From positions 186,001 to 250,000 of the forward strand of contig NZ_FXAP01000005.1 in assembly GCF_900177615.1 (NCBI RefSeq): a stretch of DNA of 64,000 nucleotides, written 5' to 3'. The notes beneath the pieces are model-generated. The model saw nothing but the letters and a program-made list of their open reading frames with translations, was not told the origin of the DNA and did no database searches. The stretch's first letter is position 1. Each line of letters starts with the position of its first letter. This document shows positions 51,549-62,096 of the stretch, one piece after another. The stretch is from Plantibacter flavus. GTDB taxonomy: Bacteria; Actinomycetota; Actinomycetes; Actinomycetales; Microbacteriaceae. The position numbers and the translations under genes were made by a program.

Positions 51549-52382
51549 TCAGGCGAGCACGACCGCCTGCACCGGGTCGTCGGCGGGCAGGACGTCGATC
51601 AGGGCGTCGATCCGCATGTCCTCGACGGTCACGTTGCCGTGATGGTTGCTCAACCAGGCCACGTCCGCGGCGTCGCGTCCGGTGGCGATGCGGACGAGCG
51701 ACTGGCGCGGTGCCAGGCCCGTCGCGTCGACCACGTGCCAGGCGCCGTCGACGAAGCCCTCGGCGACCGCGTGGAAGTCCATGGGGACGAGACCCGGGGC
51801 GTAGACCGCGGCGTACCGGGCCGGGATGTCGAGCGCCCGCAGCATCGCGATGGTCAAGTGCGCGAAGTCCCGGCACACGCCACGCCCCGCGGCCAGAGTC
51901 GACACCGCACTGTCCGACACGGTCGTGGAGCCGGAGACGTAGGAGAGGTGTCGCCCGACCCACGCTGCCACCCATGGCAGCACCTGCAGACCGCCGGACA
52001 CCGTGCCGTCCTCGTGCAGGCGACGGTGCTCGAGGAGGTAGCCGAGCTCGGAGCGCGCGAGCGAGAACAGCGCGTCCGACTCGCAGTACCGGCTGGGACG
52101 GAGGTAGGTCACGGTCTCCAAGGTGTCCACGGGACGCGGCACGGCCTGCCCGACGACCACCGCCTCGTAGTCGACCTGCAACCGGCCGGGCTCGGCGATG
52201 ACCCGGTGGAGTCGTGTGTCGTCCGGACCCACGATCTCGGTGACGGCGCACGGGCCGTCCGAGGAGTGCACCTGCAGTCGCTCGCTCGCCAGCGGGGTGC
52301 CGCCGGCTGCAGCGATGGAGAAGATGAGGTCGGCTCGATCGTGCACCCGCAGATCGAGCGACGCGGTCAGGGTGCGCTGCAT
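51549..52382 (-). CDS. Transglutaminase-like cysteine protease-fold protein
   Basis: 277 residues. An N-terminal beta domain (about 1-110, the bacterial transglutaminase-like N region) precedes the catalytic core with Cys in GRGVCRDFAHL, His in MDFHAVAEGF and Asp in HVVDATGLAPR, the full triad. Related proteins act as peptidases or amidases; most have no proven substrate. No signal peptide, so probably cytosolic. It stands between argS and the tRNA gene on the argS strand, 60 bp from the argS start. Confidence 0.85.
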   Translation of the reverse strand: MQRTLTASLDLRVHDRADLIFSIAAAGGTPLASERLQVHSSDGPCAVTEIVGPDDTRLHRVIAEPGRLQVDYEAVVVGQAVPRPVDTLETVTYLRPSRYCESDALFSLARSELGYLLEHRRLHEDGTVSGGLQVLPWVAAWVGRHLSYVSGSTTVSDSAVSTLAAGRGVCRDFAHLTIAMLRALDIPARYAAVYAPGLVPMDFHAVAEGFVDGAWHVVDATGLAPRQSLVRIATGRDAADVAWLSNHHGNVTVEDMRIDALIDVLPADDPVQAVVLA

Positions 52383-52602: not shown

Positions 52603-53271
52603 ATGCACCGAGCCGATCCCCTCCCGCGGCCGACGGTCCGCTTCCTGCGCTGGGCCGGCGCCGCTGAGCTCGACCTCGCCGGCACGGCCGCCCGGCTGGA
52701 CCCGTCCGCCCGTGACCGCCTCGACACCTCGTCCGCGACCGCGGCCCGTCGGTTCCTGTTCGGTCGCGCACTGCTCGTGCGCACCGTCGCGGAGACGATC
52801 GGCACCGACCCCGAGCGGATCGAGGTCACGGCGTTCTGCCCGGACTGCGCTCGCGCGCACGGACGACCACGGGTGCGCTTCGGAGACCGGACCGTCCAGG
52901 TGAGCGTCTCCCACACCGCCGACGCCTCCGCCGTGGCGGTGTCGATCGAGCACCCTGTCGGTGTCGACGTCGAACGGCTCGACGCGGCCCGGTTCGCCGG
53001 GGTCGAGGACGTCGCCCTCACCCCCGCGGAACGGGAGCAGTGGCAGCGGCTCCCGGACCGACGACGCCTCCGGGCGCTCGCCGAGCGTTGGACGGCGAAG
53101 GAGGCCGTGACGAAGGCTCTCGGTACGGGCCTCACGACCGATCCCGCGACGATCGACCTCGGGCCGGGTGCCACACCACACGTCTCCGAGACCGCGGGTC
53201 ACCGCTTCGTCATCGACCACCCGGAGCCCGCGCCGGGATTCGTCGTCGCGACGGCCCTCCTGCTCCGCTGA
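52603..53271 (+). CDS. 4'-phosphopantetheinyl transferase (Sfp type)
   Basis: 222 residues, pseudo-dimer length of Sfp-type enzymes. Magnesium/CoA motif VGVDVE (D122, E124) and WTAKEA (W163, K166, E167) are present, as is a substrate block FCPDCARAHGRP with two Cys. It moves phosphopantetheine from CoA to the Ser of a carrier domain. The carrier domain of the Pls-like synthetase 2.6 kb away is the obvious local partner. ATG 52603 is 55 bp after the tRNA. It converges with the peptidase gene, 5 bp between stops. Confidence 0.93.
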   Translation: MHRADPLPRPTVRFLRWAGAAELDLAGTAARLDPSARDRLDTSSATAARRFLFGRALLVRTVAETIGTDPERIEVTAFCPDCARAHGRPRVRFGDRTVQVSVSHTADASAVAVSIEHPVGVDVERLDAARFAGVEDVALTPAEREQWQRLPDRRRLRALAERWTAKEAVTKALGTGLTTDPATIDLGPGATPHVSETAGHRFVIDHPEPAPGFVVATALLLR

Positions 53272-53276
53272 CCGGT

Positions 53277-54611
53277 TCAGCCGACGGGGAAGGGCGGGAG
53301 CGTCTCCTGGAAGAGCCACGCGTCGAGGAGCGGCTCGACCGGTGCCGGTGCATGTCGATCGGCCGTCCGGATGAAGTCGTCCGTCGACACGCTCGAGTGC
53401 CGGAAGGACGCCACCCAGTCACGCAGGAGGTCGAAGAACGCCTCGTCGCCGAGCAGTCGGCGCACGGCGTGCAGGGCGATCGCGCCCCGCTTGTAGACCC
53501 GGTCGTCGAACATGTCCGCTGGGCCCGGATCGCCGACGACGAGGTCCTGCGGTGCCCGTCGGAGCGCTGCGTAGTGCGCCCGGGCACAGGCGTCGGCGCT
53601 CTCGGCCCCCGACTCCTCCGACCACAGCCACTCGGCGTAGCAGGCGAAGCCCTCGTGCAACCAGATGTCCCGCCAGGCGGCGATCGTCAGGCTGTTCCCG
53701 AACCACTGGTGGGCGAGCTCGTGCGCGATCAACCGCTCCGAACCGCTGACGCCGTCGACGTGGTTGCGGCCGAACACGCTCATCCCCTGCGCCTCGAGTG
53801 GGATCTCCAGCACGTCGTCGGTGACGACGACGCCGTAGCTGCCGAAGGGGTAGGGGCCGAAGGCGCGCTCGAAGCACGCCAGCATGTCGACCTGGTCGGC
53901 GAAGTCGTGTCGGAACCGCGCGGTGAGGTCGCGCGGCAGGTGCGCGACGACCGGCACCGTGCTCGTCGCGACCCGAGCGCTGACGGCGAGCCGCTGGTAC
54001 CGGCCGATCTGCACCGTCGCGAGGTAGGCGGCCATCGGTTCGGGCTGCTCGTAGACCCACGTGGTCCGGCTCGCGCGGGCGACCCGCGACACCAGCTCTC
54101 CGGGGGCGACGACCGTGTACGCCGACGATGCCGTGACACTGATCCGGTAGGACGACTTGTCCGAGGGGTGGTCGTTGCAGGGGAACCAACTCGATGCGCC
54201 GCACGGCTGAGACGCCACGATCACCCCGTCCTCGAGTTCCTCCCAGCCGATCTCGCCCCAGGGGCTCCGCACAGGACGGGGCGCACCCGAGTACCGGACG
54301 AGCACGGAGAACTCGGCGCCGTCCGCGATGGTGTTCCGGGGCGTCAGCGTGAGCTTGCCCGAGCCGTGCGTCCGCTTCGCCTCGACCCCGTCGACCTGGA
54401 CACGCGTGACGCGCAGCGCGGCGAGGTCGAGCGAGAAGCGCGTGAGCTCCTCCGTCGCGACGGCGGTGAGTCGAGCCGTCCCGGACAGGGCGTTGCGGTC
54501 GACGTCGTAGTCGAGTTCCAGCTCGTACCGTACGACACGGTAGCCACGGTTCCCGCTGGAGGGCGTGTAGGGGTCGCCTGCGCTCCGCAGACGGGCGAGA
54601 GCCTCCCCCAT
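53277..54611 (-). CDS. M1-family zinc metallopeptidase
   Basis: 444 residues, short for M1 because the C-terminal HEAT-like domain is absent. N-terminal beta domain (20-215), then thermolysin-like domain: zinc motif HELAH (297-301) with the third ligand E320 in WLHEGFACY. The exopeptidase GAMEN motif is replaced by EAQGM (273-277), a form seen in some actinobacterial M1 enzymes. No signal peptide. The ATG shares one base with the pls-like stop (TGATG), so translation is coupled. Epsilon-poly-lysine producers carry an M1-type degrading enzyme (Pld), sometimes next to pls, so trimming or self-protection against the polymer is a reasonable inference. Confidence 0.88.
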   Translation of the reverse strand: MGEALARLRSAGDPYTPSSGNRGYRVVRYELELDYDVDRNALSGTARLTAVATEELTRFSLDLAALRVTRVQVDGVEAKRTHGSGKLTLTPRNTIADGAEFSVLVRYSGAPRPVRSPWGEIGWEELEDGVIVASQPCGASSWFPCNDHPSDKSSYRISVTASSAYTVVAPGELVSRVARASRTTWVYEQPEPMAAYLATVQIGRYQRLAVSARVATSTVPVVAHLPRDLTARFRHDFADQVDMLACFERAFGPYPFGSYGVVVTDDVLEIPLEAQGMSVFGRNHVDGVSGSERLIAHELAHQWFGNSLTIAAWRDIWLHEGFACYAEWLWSEESGAESADACARAHYAALRRAPQDLVVGDPGPADMFDDRVYKRGAIALHAVRRLLGDEAFFDLLRDWVASFRHSSVSTDDFIRTADRHAPAPVEPLLDAWLFQETLPPFPVG

Positions 54612-57600
54612 CAGGACGCGACCTGGGGCTCCCGGTACTCCGCCGTCGTCACCTCGCGCCACGGGCCGATCGGGTTGCCGCTCCACCGGGTGCCCGCCGG
54701 GACGCGTTCTCCGCGCATGACGAGCGAGGCCGGTCCGACCGTCGCGTCGTCGTCGATCCGCGCTCCGGGGAGGATGACGCTGTGCGGCCCGAGCGTGGCG
54801 CCCGATGCGAGTTCGACCTGATCCATACTCATGATTCGATCATGGAACAGGTGCGTTTGCACAACGCAGCCCCGGTTGACCGTCGCGCCGTCGCCGAGCC
54901 GGACGAGGTCGGCCTCCGGAAGCCAGTAGCTCTCGCACCAGACCCCACGACCGATGCGGGCTCCGAGCGAGCGCAACCACCAGGTGAGGGCGGGGGTGCC
55001 GGTGGCTGGTGCCGCGAACCACGGCGCCGCGACCATCTCGACGAAGGTGTCGGACACCTCGTTGCGCCAGATGAACGAGGACCAGAGCGGGTGCTCCCCT
55101 GTCCGGATCGGGCCGACGATCACCCACTTGGCGACGGTCGTGATCCCCGCCGCGACCGCGCCGGCGGCCAGGAGCACGGCTCCGCTGACGGCGATCGCGA
55201 CGCCGAGACCCCAGGTGTCGGCGAACCAAGCGAGGGCGAGGAGCACCAGGAGCGCGATGCCCGTCGTCACCATGACGGGGACGATGCGGCACAGCTCCCA
55301 CAGTGCACGGGCGATCCGGAGCCGGAGCGGCGGGTCGTAGGTGCGGTCGAGATCGGCGTCGGACACCTGCCGCCGGAGCCGCATCGGTGGGCTCCCGAGC
55401 CAGGACGAGCCGGACTTGGCCTTCCGCGGTGCGGCCGACAGGACAGCGACGAGCCCGTTCTTGGGAACGTGCATGCCGGGGCCCGCCATGCCGGAGTTGC
55501 CGAGGAAGGCGCGCTTGCCGACGGACGCACCGGCGATCCGCATCCACCCGCCGCCGAGCTCGTAGGAGGCCACCATCGTGTCGTCCGCGAGGAACGCACC
55601 GTCGCCGACGGTCGTCATCCGCGGGAGGAGGAGCACCGTCGACGCCTCCACGTTGCGCCCGACCTTCGCCCCGAGCAGGCGGAGCCAGACGGGCGTGAAG
55701 AGGCTCGCGTACAGGGGGAAGAGGAGGGTGCGCGCGGCGTCCAGGAGCCGCTCCGTTGCCCACACCTGCCAACCGACCCGACTGCGCACCGGGAAGTAGC
55801 CCTCGCTGAGACCGAGTCCGAGCAGCCGGACCAGGCCGATCGTGCTGATCGCCAGGACGATGAACCACACGAGGGTGGCGACGGGCACCCAGAGCAGCGC
55901 GCGCCAGGAGAACTCGAGCAGGCTGGTCGCTCCCGACGCGCCGGCCGCCACGACCGCCGCCGCCAGCACGAAGGCGAGGAACGGCAGCACCGACAGCAGC
56001 GCCGATCCCGCGCCGTACGCGAACAGCCAGTGTCGGCGGCGCGGGGGTCGTTCGGTCGGCCACACCGGTTTCGCCTTACCGACGCGGACGGCGGGCGACC
56101 CTGACCACAGGTGTCCGGAGGGGACGCGGCCGAAGACCGACGATCCTGGAGCGATCTCCGCACGCTTGCCGATCCGGGTGCCGGCGAGCAGGGTACTGCG
56201 AGCGCCGACCGTGCTCTCGGCGCCGATGTGGACGTGGCCCAGTCGGAGCGTGTCGCCGTCGACCCAGTAGCCGCGGAGGTCGACCTCGGGCTCGATCGAT
56301 GCGCGCGCCCCGACGGTGAGGAACCCGGTGACCGGCGGCACGCTGTGGAGGTCCGCGTCGGCACCGATCTTCGCGCCGAGCGCCCTGGCGTAGCTCGAGA
56401 TCCAGGGGGCTCCGGCGAGACTCACCGCGCCGACCGTGTCGGCGACGCGTTCGGCGAGCCAGAGTCGCACATGGACCGAGCCGCCGCGCGGGTAGTCGCC
56501 CGGGCGGACGCCGACGAGGAGGAGCTTCGCCGCGATCACGGAGATCGCCATGCGTCCGATCGGAGTGATGACCACGAGGAAGCCGAGGGCGATCCACCAC
56601 CACGAGACCATGGGGAGGTACGGGACATCCGCTACGAGGCCGAGGACCCGACTGCCGGCGAGCAGGTACACGAGCCACCGGAGTCCGACGAGGATGAGGA
56701 GCGGGACACCCAGGAGGGTCTGTGCCCACTGAGTCGCGAGCGGCGTCGGGAGCACGGGGTCCGCGACGGCCGCCCGACTGCGACGCTCGGGGCGTCGGCC
56801 GTCGAGTTCGGCGGCCATCGCGCCGAGTCGGGGGTGGCCGTAGATGTCGGCGACCGTGAACTCGGCGTCCCGGGTGCGGATGAGCGAGACGAGCTGCGCG
56901 GCTGCCAGGCTCCCGCCGCCCAGGCTGAAGAAGTTGTCGCTCTCGGCTGTGACCCGGACACCGAGGACGGCCGTCCACTGCTCGGCGAGCCACGCGGCGG
57001 TGCCCGACAGGGTCGAGGCGTCCTCCCCGTCGGCGGCGTCCAGCGGCCACGGCAGCGCGGCCCGGTCGACCTTGCCGGAGGTGCGGGTGGGCAGCTCGCC
57101 GACGACCGCGAGGAGCGGGACGAGCGGTGCCGGGAGCTGCTCACGGAGGGTGTCGAGCGCCCGCTCGACGGAGAACCCGTCGCGGTCGGGCACCGCGAGG
57201 TACCCCACGAGGACGGCGTTCCCGGCGGCGGTGCGCTGGACGGCTGCTGCCGCACCCGAGACGCCCGGCAGCGCCTGCAGGGCGGCCTCGATCTCCCCGA
57301 GTTCCACGCGTCGGCCGCCGATCTTCACCTGGTCGTCCGCGCGCCCCTGGAACACGAGTCCTGCGGCCTCGTAGCGGACGAGGTCGCCGCTCCGGTACGC
57401 CCGCGACCACCCGATGCTCGGCATGGGCGCATACCGTTCGGCGTCCTTCGCGGGGTCGAGGTACCGGGCGAGTCCGACGCCGCCGATGATGAGCTCGCCG
57501 ACGCCGCCCTCCTCGACCGGGATGCCCTCGGCGTCGACCACGGCGAGGTCCCACCCGTCGAGCGGCAGTCCGATCCGCACGGGCTGCTCGCCGGTCAGCA

Positions 57601-58615
57601 GCGCGGCGCAGGCGACGACGGTGGCTTCGGTTGGTCCGTAGGTGTTCCAGACCTCGCGGCCGTCCACGGCCAGCCGGGCGGCGAGCTCCGGCGGGCAGGC
57701 CTCGCCGCCGAAGATGAGCATGCGGATGTTCTCGAGGGATTCGGCGGGCCACATCGCCGCCAGCGTGGGCACCGTCGACACCACGGTGATGCCCTTCGCG
57801 GTGAGCCAGGGTCCGAGGTCCATGCCGCTGCGGACGAGCGAGCGCGGCGCCGGGACCAGGCACGCGCCGTGTCCCCAGGCGAGCCACATCTCCTCGCAGG
57901 ATGCATCGAAGGCGACGGACAGGCCGGCCAACACACGATCACCGGGGCCGAGGGGTTCCGTCTGGAGGAAGATCCGCGCCTCGGCATCGACGAACGCGGC
58001 AGCAGAGCGGTGCGAGACGGCGACGCCCTTCGGCGTGCCCGTCGATCCGGAGGTGAAGATGATCCAGGAGTCGTCGTCGAGTCGCGGTGGTTCGAGGACC
58101 GGGATCGCCCGGGTGCCCGGGTGGGGTGCCGCGCCCGTCGCGAGTTGCACCCGGTCGGGATCGGCGCCGTCATCGGCCGGGTCCTCCGTGCTTCGGCGCG
58201 AACGCTCGAAGACACCGCCGTCGACCAGGACGCCGACGACGGCCGCCTCACCGAACACGAGTCGTGCCCGCTCCTCCGGGTCGTCGGCGTCGACGGGCAC
58301 GTAGGCCGCTCCGGTGAACAGGATCCCGAGGATCCCGAGGTAGAGGTCGCGGGTGCCCGAGGCGATCCGGACACCGACCCGGTCACCGCGCCGGACCCCG
58401 GCGGCGAACAGCCCGGCCGCGACCCGCTCGGCGCTGAGGACGAGCTCGCGGTAGCTGAGCGCCCCCTCCGCGTCCTCGATCGCCGAGGCCTCGGGGTGCG
58501 ACGCGGCGACGTCACGGAGGACGTCGAGCAGGGTGCGTTCGGCCGGTGCGCGCACGCCACCGAGCAGCGCGGGCTGCCGCTCGATGAGGAGGGCGGTGCT
58601 GGTGTCGGCGTCCAT
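54611..58615 (-). CDS. Pls-like single-module NRPS: A-T domains, six membrane helices, three LbH domains
   Basis: 1334 residues, close to Streptomyces epsilon-poly-lysine synthetase Pls (about 1319). Adenylation domain (about 25-520): A3 TSGSTGTPKG (188-197), A4 FDASCEEMW (236-244), A5 NTYGPTE (324-330), A7 YRSGDL, A8 GRADDQVKIGGRRVE, A10 Lys at 515. Carrier domain (540-605) has LGGGSL with the pantetheine Ser 569. Six membrane helices follow in three pairs (about 635-655, 672-700; 865-892, 905-930; 1108-1133, 1136-1165), with hexapeptide-type domains after each pair (about 745-830, 980-1060, 1218-1305). No condensation or thioesterase domain exists. In Pls these tandem domains catalyse isopeptide polymer growth at the membrane. 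ATG 58615 has AGGGGA upstream. The monomer is unknown; Asp237 fits an alpha-amino acid. Confidence 0.88.
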   Translation of the reverse strand: MDADTSTALLIERQPALLGGVRAPAERTLLDVLRDVAASHPEASAIEDAEGALSYRELVLSAERVAAGLFAAGVRRGDRVGVRIASGTRDLYLGILGILFTGAAYVPVDADDPEERARLVFGEAAVVGVLVDGGVFERSRRSTEDPADDGADPDRVQLATGAAPHPGTRAIPVLEPPRLDDDSWIIFTSGSTGTPKGVAVSHRSAAAFVDAEARIFLQTEPLGPGDRVLAGLSVAFDASCEEMWLAWGHGACLVPAPRSLVRSGMDLGPWLTAKGITVVSTVPTLAAMWPAESLENIRMLIFGGEACPPELAARLAVDGREVWNTYGPTEATVVACAALLTGEQPVRIGLPLDGWDLAVVDAEGIPVEEGGVGELIIGGVGLARYLDPAKDAERYAPMPSIGWSRAYRSGDLVRYEAAGLVFQGRADDQVKIGGRRVELGEIEAALQALPGVSGAAAAVQRTAAGNAVLVGYLAVPDRDGFSVERALDTLREQLPAPLVPLLAVVGELPTRTSGKVDRAALPWPLDAADGEDASTLSGTAAWLAEQWTAVLGVRVTAESDNFFSLGGGSLAAAQLVSLIRTRDAEFTVADIYGHPRLGAMAAELDGRRPERRSRAAVADPVLPTPLATQWAQTLLGVPLLILVGLRWLVYLLAGSRVLGLVADVPYLPMVSWWWIALGFLVVITPIGRMAISVIAAKLLLVGVRPGDYPRGGSVHVRLWLAERVADTVGAVSLAGAPWISSYARALGAKIGADADLHSVPPVTGFLTVGARASIEPEVDLRGYWVDGDTLRLGHVHIGAESTVGARSTLLAGTRIGKRAEIAPGSSVFGRVPSGHLWSGSPAVRVGKAKPVWPTERPPRRRHWLFAYGAGSALLSVLPFLAFVLAAAVVAAGASGATSLLEFSWRALLWVPVATLVWFIVLAISTIGLVRLLGLGLSEGYFPVRSRVGWQVWATERLLDAARTLLFPLYASLFTPVWLRLLGAKVGRNVEASTVLLLPRMTTVGDGAFLADDTMVASYELGGGWMRIAGASVGKRAFLGNSGMAGPGMHVPKNGLVAVLSAAPRKAKSGSSWLGSPPMRLRRQVSDADLDRTYDPPLRLRIARALWELCRIVPVMVTTGIALLVLLALAWFADTWGLGVAIAVSGAVLLAAGAVAAGITTVAKWVIVGPIRTGEHPLWSSFIWRNEVSDTFVEMVAAPWFAAPATGTPALTWWLRSLGARIGRGVWCESYWLPEADLVRLGDGATVNRGCVVQTHLFHDRIMSMDQVELASGATLGPHSVILPGARIDDDATVGPASLVMRGERVPAGTRWSGNPIGPWREVTTAEYREPQVAS

Positions 58616-58761
58616 ACGCGATCCCCTGTCGTCCGGCTGTTCAGCGCCGCCAACGGTAGGCAGCGCGCATGGACGGTTGGTGAACACCAGTCAACCGCCA
58701 GATGTCGTGGAATCGTCGGCGACGCTCCGTCAGCCCCCGGCGTCCTCGGAGGGCGCGCGCC

Positions 58762-58767
58762 TACCAT
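58762..58767 (+). promoter_or_regulatory. Possible -10 element of the second aminotransferase gene
   Basis: TACCAT lies seven bases before ATG 58775 and no spaced ribosome site is present, suggesting a leaderless message. It lies in the 159-bp divergent region shared with the Pls-like gene, where the opposite promoter must also be. Confidence 0.4.
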
Positions 58768-58774
58768 GGCCTGC

Positions 58775-60109
58775 ATGACCATCGACTACTCCGTGCCCCA
58801 GGAACGCCAGCTCGTGACCGCCATCCCCGGCCCCCGATCGCTCGCCCTCACGGAACGGCGCCGCCGGGCGGTGTCACGCGGTGCCGGCAACCTCGCGCCG
58901 GTGTGGATGGACCACGGTTCCGGCGGCATCCTCGTGGACGTCGACGGCAACCACATCATCGACCTCGGAACGGGCATCGGTGTGACGACCATCGGACACG
59001 CCAACCCCGATGTCGCCGCGGCAGCAGCCGAGCAGGCGACGAAGCTCACGCACACGCTCTTCACCGTGACGCCGTACGAGAACTACCTGCGCGTCGCGGA
59101 GAAGCTGTCCGAGATCACGCCGGGCGACTTCGAGAAGCGCTCGATCCTCCTGAACTCCGGTGCCGAGGCCGTCGAGAACGCGGTGAAGATCGCGAAGAAG
59201 TACACCGGACGTCGCGCGATCGTCGCCCTCGACCACGCCTTCCACGGACGCACGAACCTGACGATGGCGATGACCTACCGGTCGGCGCCCGAGCGCCTCG
59301 GGTTCGGTCCGTTCCCCGGCGAGATCTACAGTGTCCCGCTCTCCTACCCCTTCCGCGACGGACTCGACGGACCGGCGGCTGCCGAGGTGACGATCGACTA
59401 CATCGAGCGGCACATCGGTGCGAGTGAGGTCGCCGCGTTCTTCGCCGAACCGGTCCTCGGCGACGGCGGCATCGTCATCCCCGCGCCCGGCTACTTTGCG
59501 CGCATCAGCGAGTGGTGCACCGAGAACGGGATCGTGTTCGTCGCCGACGAGATCCAGGCCGGCATCGGACGCACGGGTGCCTGGTACTCGATCGAGCACC
59601 ACGGCGTCGTGCCCGATCTCATCACGAGTGCCAAGGGCATCGCCGGCGGCTTCCCGCTGTCGGCCGTGACCGGGCGTGCCGAGATCATGGACGCCGTCCA
59701 GCCCGGTGGCATCGGCGGCACCTTCGGCGGCAACCCGGTGTCCACGGCGGCCGCGCTCGCGACGTTCGAGGTCATCGAGCGCGAGGACCTGTTGGGCGAG
59801 GCCCGTCGGGTGGAGGCGACCCTGCGATCGCTCATCGGTGACTGGGCCGAGCGCTTCGACATCGTCGGCGAGGTCCGGATCATCGGTGCCATGGCCGGCG
59901 TCGAGTTGGTCGTCCCCGGCACGAAGCAGCCGCACCCCACGGCACTGCAGACCGTCATCGACGCGGCGATCGCCCAGGGTGTGCTCGTGCTCGACGCCGG
60001 TTCCTGGGACTCGGTGCTGCGACTCCTCCCGAGCGCGGTCATGTCCGACGAGCTCCTCCGCGACGCGGTGTCCGTCCTCGAGGACGCCCTGCGTCAGGTC
60101 GCCTCCTAG
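58775..60109 (+). CDS. Class III aminotransferase, GabT paralogue
   Basis: 444 residues, closely similar to the gabT product at 1199-2572 over its length. PLP features are NSGAEA (128-133), ADEIQ (D258) and Lys287 in SAKGIAGG. The gating loop reads EPVLGDGG, so the Glu that switches substrates in GABA aminotransferase is Asp here, which may alter specificity. ATG 58775 (MTIDYSV) is favoured; ATG 58766 in frame is an alternative. It is divergent from the Pls-like gene, so it could supply or recycle an omega-amino acid or diamine linked to the polymer. That is inference; a plain second GABA aminotransferase is equally possible. Confidence 0.85.
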   Translation: MTIDYSVPQERQLVTAIPGPRSLALTERRRRAVSRGAGNLAPVWMDHGSGGILVDVDGNHIIDLGTGIGVTTIGHANPDVAAAAAEQATKLTHTLFTVTPYENYLRVAEKLSEITPGDFEKRSILLNSGAEAVENAVKIAKKYTGRRAIVALDHAFHGRTNLTMAMTYRSAPERLGFGPFPGEIYSVPLSYPFRDGLDGPAAAEVTIDYIERHIGASEVAAFFAEPVLGDGGIVIPAPGYFARISEWCTENGIVFVADEIQAGIGRTGAWYSIEHHGVVPDLITSAKGIAGGFPLSAVTGRAEIMDAVQPGGIGGTFGGNPVSTAAALATFEVIEREDLLGEARRVEATLRSLIGDWAERFDIVGEVRIIGAMAGVELVVPGTKQPHPTALQTVIDAAIAQGVLVLDAGSWDSVLRLLPSAVMSDELLRDAVSVLEDALRQVAS

Positions 60110-61349: not shown

Positions 61350-62096
61350 CTAGGCTGCGGCGCGCTCGGCCTCGCGGGCGAGACCGCCGAGCAGGAGCCC
61401 GAGCTGGTCGTCCACGGTGCCGGGGTCCTCCGGGTGCCACTGCACGCCGGTGATCGGCAGGGTGCGGTGCTCGATCGCCTCGACGGTGCCGTCGGAGGCC
61501 CAGGCGACGGCACGCAGACCCTCGCCGAGCTCGCCGACCGACTGGTGGTGGGCGCTCTGCACCTGGAGGTGACGGGCACCGAGTCGGAACGCGAGGGCAC
61601 TCGAGGCGTCGAGCTCGACCTCGTGCGGGGTCATGCTCTCATCGACCGGGACACCCTCGTTGCGGTGGGCGCTGTGCTCACCGAGGTCCTGCACGAGCGT
61701 CCCGCCGAGGGCGACGTTGATGATCTGGTGACCGCGGCAGATCCCGAGCAGCGGTGTGCCCCGCTCGGCGGCGCGACGGGCGACCGCCAGCTGGGCGCGG
61801 TCGGCCTCGGGGAAGTGCTGCCCCTCGGCGCGGTAGCCGGTGGTTCCGCCGTACTGGGCGGGATCGATGTCGGCTCCGCCCATGATGACGACGGCGGAGG
61901 CCCCGTCGGTCGAGGCGAGGAGCGCATCTGTCCCGAGGTCGTGCGCGGCCAACCGGGTCACGCGCCAGCCGGCCCGTTCGGCGGCGGCGATGGTCCGTCC
62001 GACGAGGATCTGCACGTACTCGTGGTATGCCTGGTCGTCCTCACGGAACCTGGTGACCTCGACGAGCGCCAGCATGGGTGAGACGTGTCCTTGCAT
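61350..62096 (-). CDS. Gamma-glutamyl-GABA hydrolase-like class I amidotransferase (peptidase C26)
   Basis: 248 residues. Catalytic Cys in LLGICRGHQIINV, His and Glu in VQWHPEDPG, and the PuuD-like QSAHHQSVGEL. The family cleaves gamma-glutamyl-GABA or similar isopeptides in putrescine breakdown. ATG 62096 follows AAGGAG. Bases 61166-61349 between it and DUF3097 hold nothing I recognise. Isopeptide cleavage near a Pls-like polymerase and a GabT paralogue is suggestive but not evidence of one pathway. Confidence 0.85.
   Translation of the reverse strand: MQGHVSPMLALVEVTRFREDDQAYHEYVQILVGRTIAAAERAGWRVTRLAAHDLGTDALLASTDGASAVVIMGGADIDPAQYGGTTGYRAEGQHFPEADRAQLAVARRAAERGTPLLGICRGHQIINVALGGTLVQDLGEHSAHRNEGVPVDESMTPHEVELDASSALAFRLGARHLQVQSAHHQSVGELGEGLRAVAWASDGTVEAIEHRTLPITGVQWHPEDPGTVDDQLGLLLGGLAREAERAAA

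What the first reader, a model, noticed from the sequence alone, without database searches (positions are those of the whole stretch)
54611..58615. Pls-like isopeptide polymer synthetase: candidate new cationic homopolymer system
The sequence directly shows A and T domains, no condensation or thioesterase domain, six membrane helices in three pairs and three hexapeptide-type domains in a 1334-residue chain. This matches the epsilon-poly-L-lysine synthetase Pls (established architecture), which polymerises one amino acid through side-chain amines. Pls is best known in Streptomyces; a Microbacteriaceae member with a coupled peptidase and nearby PPTase would be a fresh source of an antimicrobial poly-amino acid. 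Product identity is inference.
Basis: partly seen in the sequence, partly recalled or inferred. Interest (0 to 1): 0.9.

Follow-up and report, generated by a model that had tools for sequence, protein, structure and literature searches.

The report
Known polylysine synthetase and coupled peptidase
This gene most likely makes epsilon-poly-L-lysine, a well-known antimicrobial polymer used as a food preservative, and it sits beside a peptidase of the kind that trims that polymer; the same arrangement is already known from related bacteria, so the find is real but ordinary.

Summary
Window 54611-58615 (-) encodes 1334 aa: A domain, T domain and a terminal domain with six membrane segments in three pairs, 742 bits to TIGR02353 (Pls/PosA family, cut-off 423).

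A new polymer system is not supported. The ten-residue substrate pocket, DAESIGTVVK, matches the solved epsilon-poly-L-lysine synthase A domain (7wew). A PldII-type M1 peptidase follows through a TGATG overlap; such a gene starts within 1.5 kb downstream in 79 of the 80 nearest relatives. The gene is over cut-off in 7 of 7 genomes of the genus and 164 of 398 of the family. A Corynebacterium homologue makes epsilon-poly-L-lysine (PMC8117764), and a Plantibacter strain has a predicted cluster for it (PMC13188922); the window is probably Plantibacter.

Two modest additions. A PPTase lies convergent downstream in 33 of 41 Micrococcales relatives and 0 of 39 others. Of the terminal domain's three pseudo-repeats only the third has an invariant Q-x-H-x-x-[H/E]-D motif (63 of 63 rows), a testable catalytic site. 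No product was measured here.

The parts
54611..58615 (-). pls homologue, 1334 aa, Pls/PosA family NRPS-like synthetase (A-T-terminal membrane domain)
   Evidence: TIGR02353 742 bits (cut-off 423); best PDB match 7wew_A epsilon-poly-L-lysine synthase, 621 bits
57044..58537 (-). adenylation domain (about residues 27-524; the pocket lysine K515 is inside); pocket D237 A238 E241 S280 I301 G303 T325 V333 V334 K515
   Evidence: pocket identical to 7wew in the printed alignment and present in 114 of 116 aligned rows (the rows include the window and its own genome copy L001)
56798..57013 (-). thiolation (carrier) domain with Ser569
   Evidence: PF00550 37.7 bits; Ser569 in 63 of 63 rows
54668..56725 (-). 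terminal polymerisation domain (residues 631-1316), six membrane segments in three pairs, three pseudo-repeats C1-C3
54836..54859 (-). C3 motif QTHLFHDR (residues 1253-1260), candidate catalytic site
   Evidence: Q1253, H1255, D1259 in 63 of 63 rows; exact octapeptide in 80 of 80 named loci
54609..54613 (-). TGATG: pls stop codon overlaps the peptidase start codon (fits translational coupling)
53277..54611 (-). M1 metallopeptidase, 444 aa, PldII-like; HExxH-18-E zinc site at residues 297-320
   Evidence: same-strand M1 gene starting within 1.5 kb downstream of pls in 79 of 80 named loci
52603..53271 (+). 4'-phosphopantetheinyl transferase, 222 aa (start codon not settled), convergent with the peptidase
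   Evidence: PF01648 about 61 bits; linkage in Micrococcales
58616..58774 (.). 159-base intergenic region between pls and the divergent gabT-like gene; presumed pls promoter region
   Evidence: sequence; gabT start at 58775; promoter activity not tested

Best explanation
This is an epsilon-poly-L-lysine synthetase (Pls) in an operon with a PldII-type peptidase. Shown by sequence: the domain set, the lysine-type pocket, the overlapping peptidase gene and the neighbouring PPTase. Inferred from the family: a PPTase puts a phosphopantetheine arm on Ser569; the A domain activates L-lysine with ATP and loads it on the T domain; the membrane-embedded terminal domain lets the epsilon-amine of a free lysine or growing chain attack the thioester again and again, and a chain of roughly 25-35 residues is released outside the cell; the M1 peptidase cuts the polymer back, which limits chain length or protects the producer. 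My own inference beyond the papers seen: of the three pseudo-repeats of the terminal domain only the third (Q1253, H1255, H1258, D1259) carries the catalytic centre.
For: TIGR02353 at 742 bits against a cut-off of 423. A domain 621 bits to 7wew_A, with all ten pocket residues identical. A Streptomyces homologue (L136) whose A domain is very close to 7wew (987 bits over 481 residues) is 54% identical to the window protein, and in the T-plus-terminal-domain tree it falls in the same 58-member clade as the window, with five divergent family members outside (support 0.82). TGATG overlap with the M1 peptidase gene; PMC9223678 (passages) states that pldII is translationally coupled to pls. M1 neighbour in 79 of 80 named loci. 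PMC8117764 (abstract, results and discussion read): C. [quoted passage not shown] No lysine 2,3-aminomutase (TIGR00238) match in the genome, so a beta-lysine polymer is unlikely (the family rang in 9 of 14 control genomes).
Against: No product was measured here. C. variabile made no detectable polymer in culture although its enzyme works in another host (PMC8117764), and Plantibacter sp. RU18 with such a cluster showed no evident antagonism (PMC13188922, passages), so the gene may be silent. The pocket alone does not tell L- from D-lysine. Some relatives lack the neighbouring peptidase: 2 of 5 plasmid loci (L138, L142) and 3 of the 23 unnamed phylum loci printed (L111, L117, L128), all three with only about 1.5 kb of flank and two of them divergent family members.
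Confidence: 0.9

Rival explanations
1. Same enzyme chemistry, but the true monomer is another diamino acid (ornithine, 2,4-diaminobutyrate, 2,3-diaminopropionate, beta-lysine or D-lysine), giving a different cationic homopolymer.
For: The family makes several such polymers, and the ornithine enzyme PosA also binds L-lysine, so pockets are not fully exclusive (PMC10522769, passages). A GabT-like aminotransferase lies divergently next door; it scores just under the GABA-transaminase cut-offs (503.7 of 506.65; 614.8 of 639).
Against: The second pocket residue is Ala, the lysine state; PosA has Met and the diaminopropionate/diaminobutyrate enzymes Phe there (PMC10522769, passages). All ten residues equal 7wew. 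No lysine 2,3-aminomutase match in the genome. The pls-peptidase operon differs from the gene contexts of the diaminopropionate and diaminobutyrate synthetases (PMC8117764 results). A Peptidase_C26 gene at 61353-62096, whose best NCBIfam match is gamma-glutamyl-GABA hydrolase though far under its cut-off (65 of 266 bits), fits GABA catabolism for the aminotransferase.
Confidence: 0.05
2. The gene makes epsilon-poly-L-lysine, but its main role is not antibiosis: the polymer serves the producer's own surface, adhesion, DNA or metal binding, or stress tolerance. (This can be true together with the best explanation.)
For: The gene is in all 7 genomes of the genus, the window's own included, and no antagonism was evident for a Plantibacter strain with such a cluster (PMC13188922, passages). 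The coupled peptidase would allow turnover.
Against: No direct evidence here; epsilon-poly-L-lysine is a proven antimicrobial in other producers. Genus-wide presence is also compatible with defence.
Confidence: 0.3
3. The locus is inactive: intact sequence, but the enzyme is not expressed or the polymer is fully degraded by the peptidase.
For: C. variabile gave no polymer and no detectable Pls protein in culture (PMC8117764 results).
Against: Reading frame, pocket, carrier serine, terminal-domain motif and peptidase zinc site are intact, and the gene is kept in 7 of 7 genomes of the genus, which argues for selection.
Confidence: 0.15

Closest known systems
Epsilon-poly-L-lysine synthetase Pls of Streptomyces albulus (A-domain structure 7wew)
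   Same: A-T-terminal domain order, six membrane segments in three pairs, identical ten-residue pocket, pldII peptidase gene translationally coupled to pls (PMC9223678, passages)
   Different: 54% identical to a close Streptomyces proxy, L136; other genus; PPTase next door, which is not among the genes annotated within 4 kb of the Streptomyces and Kitasatospora plasmid copies L135 and L137 (that gene table is incomplete)
Pls of Corynebacterium variabile and its coryneform homologues (PMC8117764)
   Same: pls-peptidase operon in non-filamentous actinobacteria; Microbacterium listed among carriers; product shown to be epsilon-poly-L-lysine by heterologous expression
   Different: Other family; no direct sequence comparison with the C. 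variabile protein was run here
NAPAA / epsilon-poly-L-lysine cluster of Plantibacter sp. RU18 (PMC13188922)
   Same: Same probable genus, same predicted product by antiSMASH (100% similarity)
   Different: Other strain; the passages seen give a cluster prediction, no gene-level study
PosA, delta-poly-L-ornithine synthetase (PMC10522769)
   Same: Same family and architecture
   Different: Pocket DMEHNGTVSK with Met at the size-setting position; single-gene operon

Membership tests
Pls/PosA family (TIGR02353 terminal domain) | Terminal domain over the curated cut-off of 423 bits | tested here: met
   742.1 bits, profile positions 2-695 of 695
Pls/PosA family (TIGR02353 terminal domain) | A domain plus T domain, no condensation or thioesterase domain | tested here: met
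   PF00501 and PF00550 found; no condensation or thioesterase family in the Pfam scan
Pls/PosA family (TIGR02353 terminal domain) | Six transmembrane segments in three pairs | tested here: met
   hydropathy peaks; long helices at matching places in the model
Epsilon-poly-L-lysine synthetase (Pls proper) | Lysine-type pocket as in S. albulus Pls | tested here: met
   DAESIGTVVK, identical to 7wew in the printed alignment
Epsilon-poly-L-lysine synthetase (Pls proper) | Groups with Pls rather than with other family members | tested here: met
   58-member clade with the S. albulus proxy L136, support 0.82, five divergent members outside; no characterised diaminopropionate, diaminobutyrate or ornithine synthetase was in the tree, so this is a weak test
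Epsilon-poly-L-lysine synthetase (Pls proper) | Operon with a PldII-type M1 peptidase | tested here: met
   TGATG overlap, PF01433, HExxH-18-E site; co-transcription not tested
Epsilon-poly-L-lysine synthetase (Pls proper) | L-lysine activation and polymer of 25-35 lysines linked through the epsilon-amine | not testable with these tools
   needs enzyme assay and mass spectrometry
PldII epsilon-poly-lysine-degrading peptidase | Cuts epsilon-poly-L-lysine | not testable with these tools
   only homology: 44-48% identical to the M1 proteins next to Streptomyces pls in L136 and L135
Epsilon-poly-beta-lysine synthetase | Adjacent lysine 2,3-aminomutase | tested here: not met
   no TIGR00238 match in the whole genome

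The most novel reading that the evidence does not exclude
The terminal domain is an internally triplicated, single-chain version of a trimeric hexapeptide acyltransferase in which two of the three active sites have been lost. One catalytic centre remains in the third repeat (Q1253-x-H1255-x-x-[H/E]1258-D1259), and it makes isopeptide bonds from a carrier-bound aminoacyl thioester instead of acyl-CoA. In Micrococcales this enzyme usually travels with its own PPTase and peptidase as a three-gene module.
Probability: 0.4. Interest if true: 0.45.

Novelty: already known. Interest (0 to 1): 0.2.

Why it matters
It shows that epsilon-poly-L-lysine-type genes are common in this family (Microbacteriaceae by inference; 164 of 398 sampled genomes), not a Streptomyces speciality, and points to a plant-associated genus in which to ask what the polymer does in nature. 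How the terminal domain joins the monomers is still without an experimental structure that I could find by sequence or fold, and PMC10522769 says so for 2023. The invariant His/Asp motif in the third repeat turns that question into a few point mutants.

Tried and rejected
Rejected: a new polymer (pocket identical to the lysine enzyme); epsilon-poly-beta-lysine (no aminomutase match); a diaminobutyrate route through the neighbouring aminotransferase (it looks like GABA catabolism, and the pocket is of lysine type); the longer GTG start.

Led nowhere: looking for a solved structure of the terminal domain (one search gives hexapeptide proteins only, best E 3.3e-6; one search gives a TM-score by query length of at most 0.15 in the 50 rows shown). 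The VIA-align library was not installed. Searches failed because I gave coordinates with stop codons; searches repeated them with corrected coordinates. The first pocket script was off by one after an indel and printed DAESIGNTVK; one search corrects it to DAESIGTVVK. The script crashed after printing the genus and named loci and 23 phylum loci; the plasmid loci were read. Paper searches. 'Plantibacter' with 'polylysine' gave 0 papers, but the search with 'NAPAA' and 'Plantibacter' listed PMC13188922. Passages of PMC12689991 gave an epsilon-poly-L-lysine cluster in one sequenced strain, nothing on Microbacterium polymers. I did not find the PPTase linkage or the single-site idea in print, judged only from the listings and the passages and sections read; figures and supplements could not be seen.

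Full report
What is there. The minus-strand frame 54611-58615 starts with ATG and encodes 1334 residues. An in-frame GTG at 58687 would lengthen it to 1358, but one genome of the same genus has only 1336 open codons there (G005), so the ATG is preferred. Pfam and NCBIfam give AMP-binding 34-384, PP-binding 542-603 and the TIGR02353 terminal domain 631-1316 at 742 bits (cut-off 423), with no condensation or thioesterase family. Hydropathy shows six peaks in three pairs. It is the only one of three TIGR02353 matches in the genome that is over the cut-off. Weak TIGR02353 matches ring in 13 of 14 control genomes (over cut-off in 1), presumably other hexapeptide proteins, so only matches over the cut-off are counted here.

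Substrate. The best solved relative is the A domain of epsilon-poly-L-lysine synthase, 7wew, at 621 bits; the next best is 383. All ten pocket residues, D237 A238 E241 S280 I301 G303 T325 V333 V334 K515, are the same in the printed 7wew alignment and in 114 of 116 aligned rows. Those rows include the window and L001, its own genome's copy, and named and unnamed sets may share species. The two exceptions, L111 and L128, have no A domain in the matched frame. According to PMC10522769 (passages seen), position two sets the chain length: Ala in lysine enzymes, Met in PosA (ornithine), Phe in the diaminopropionate and diaminobutyrate enzymes. The window has Ala. The genome has no lysine 2,3-aminomutase match.

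Relatives. The closest named relative is from Plantibacter sp. VKM Ac-2880 (92% in the best segment), with the GabT-like and DUF3097 neighbours also kept. The gene is over cut-off in 7 of 7 genomes of the genus, the window's own included, 164 of 398 of the family and 24 of 396 drawn from the phylum. In a FastTree tree of the T and terminal domains (63 rows), the window and a Streptomyces homologue whose A domain is very close to 7wew (L136) fall in one clade of 58 (support 0.82), and five divergent members fall outside. Several inner nodes are poorly supported (down to 0.03). No characterised ornithine, diaminobutyrate or diaminopropionate synthetase was in the tree.

Neighbours. The pls stop and the start of the next gene overlap as TGATG. 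That gene is a 444-aa M1 metallopeptidase with an intact HExxH-18-E site. A same-strand M1 frame begins within 1.5 kb downstream in 79 of the 80 named loci (the 80th, L076, has it a little over 2 kb downstream). Counter-examples: L138 and L142 of 5 plasmid loci, and L111, L117 and L128 of the 23 phylum loci printed, which have only about 1.5 kb of flank. PMC9223678 (passages) says pldII is translationally coupled to pls and is the major epsilon-poly-lysine-degrading enzyme of S. albulus. PMC8117764 (outline, abstract, results, discussion) describes the pls-peptidase operon of C. variabile, its product made in S. coelicolor, and homologues in Microbacterium and other coryneforms.

PPTase. A PF01648 protein (52603-53271, +) ends five bases short of the end of the peptidase gene on the opposite strand. 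A PPTase profile built from the loci found one in 35 of 80 named loci; 33 lie convergently downstream (32 within 2.1 kb, L092 at 3.9 kb) and 2 (L054, L104) lie upstream. All 35 are in Micrococcales by my own assignment from record titles (41 of the 80; the unclassified MAG L105 was counted with the other 39): 33 of 41 convergent there and 0 of 39 elsewhere. Five of the 80 loci have under 5 kb after pls; among those without a PPTase, L055 has about 2.0 kb and L050 about 1.4 kb, so absence there is uncertain. The own genome has three PF01648 and three PF00550 matches. By my reading of the frames the other two carriers are a fatty-acid-type ACP and an acyltransferase-carrier-aminotransferase-like fusion; the latter lies about 5 kb from the second PPTase. 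This fits, but does not prove, a PPTase dedicated to Pls. The grouping is by lineage, so it may be inherited synteny.

Terminal domain. AlphaFold2 on the T plus terminal domain (residues 535-1334, alignment A2 of 52 rows) gave mean pLDDT 85.9 and pTM 0.86. Foldseek against the PDB gives 67 matches at E 0.001 or better; the 50 shown are mostly hexapeptide acyltransferases (serine, maltose and galactoside acetyltransferases, LpxD) and carbonic-anhydrase-like subunits of complex I, none covering the whole (query TM-score at most 0.15). PMC10522769 had already modelled PosA as a pseudo-threefold beta-helix domain (passages), so the fold is not a new result. In A1 (63 rows, five of them only 22-30% identical to the window), Q1253, H1255 and D1259 of the third repeat are invariant (63 of 63) and position 1258 is H (58) or E (5). 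H757, D786 and D788 of the first repeat are kept in 58 of 63. In the second repeat D1011 and N1040 are invariant, so it is conserved too, but it has no such histidine. E1186 and E1234, before the third-repeat motif, are also 63 of 63. The exact QTHLFHDR is in 80 of 80 named loci. I infer one catalytic centre, in the third repeat. That these residues are catalytic is not shown.

Already in print. PMC13188922 (passages) reports a NAPAA region with 100% similarity to the epsilon-poly-L-lysine cluster in Plantibacter sp. RU18 and says that antimicrobial activity was not evident in pairwise assays. The system, the gene order and even the probable genus are therefore known; only this genome's copy is undescribed in what I searched.

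Verdict. Observation confirmed; interpretation partly supported. It is an ordinary member of a well-described system; interest is low, with a modest open question in the terminal domain.

Noticed in passing
window 52603-53271 (+) and loci L026-L105: A PPTase gene lies convergently downstream of pls-pldII in 33 of 41 Micrococcales loci and in none of 39 others (order assigned by me from record titles).
   Followed up: partly
They look like split two-protein versions of the synthetase; substrate unknown.
   Followed up: partly
window 58775-60109 (+) and 61353-62096 (-): Divergent GabT-like aminotransferase just under the GABA-transaminase cut-offs, and a Peptidase_C26 gene nearby: probably GABA/putrescine catabolism. 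The GabT-like gene is also beside pls in Plantibacter sp. VKM Ac-2880.
   Followed up: partly
L138 (Rhodococcus opacus B4 plasmid pROB01) and L142 (Streptantibioticus cattleyicolor pSCAT): Pls homologues on large plasmids with no M1 peptidase match within the 4 kb of flank fetched.
   Followed up: no
G000 C2:273512-278749 (L140, L151): A second PPTase about 5 kb from an acyltransferase-carrier-aminotransferase-like fusion protein, a possible further biosynthetic locus of this genome.
   Followed up: no
window 51549-52382 (-): Transglutaminase-like protein (PF01841) just beyond the PPTase; no link to polylysine tested.
   Followed up: no
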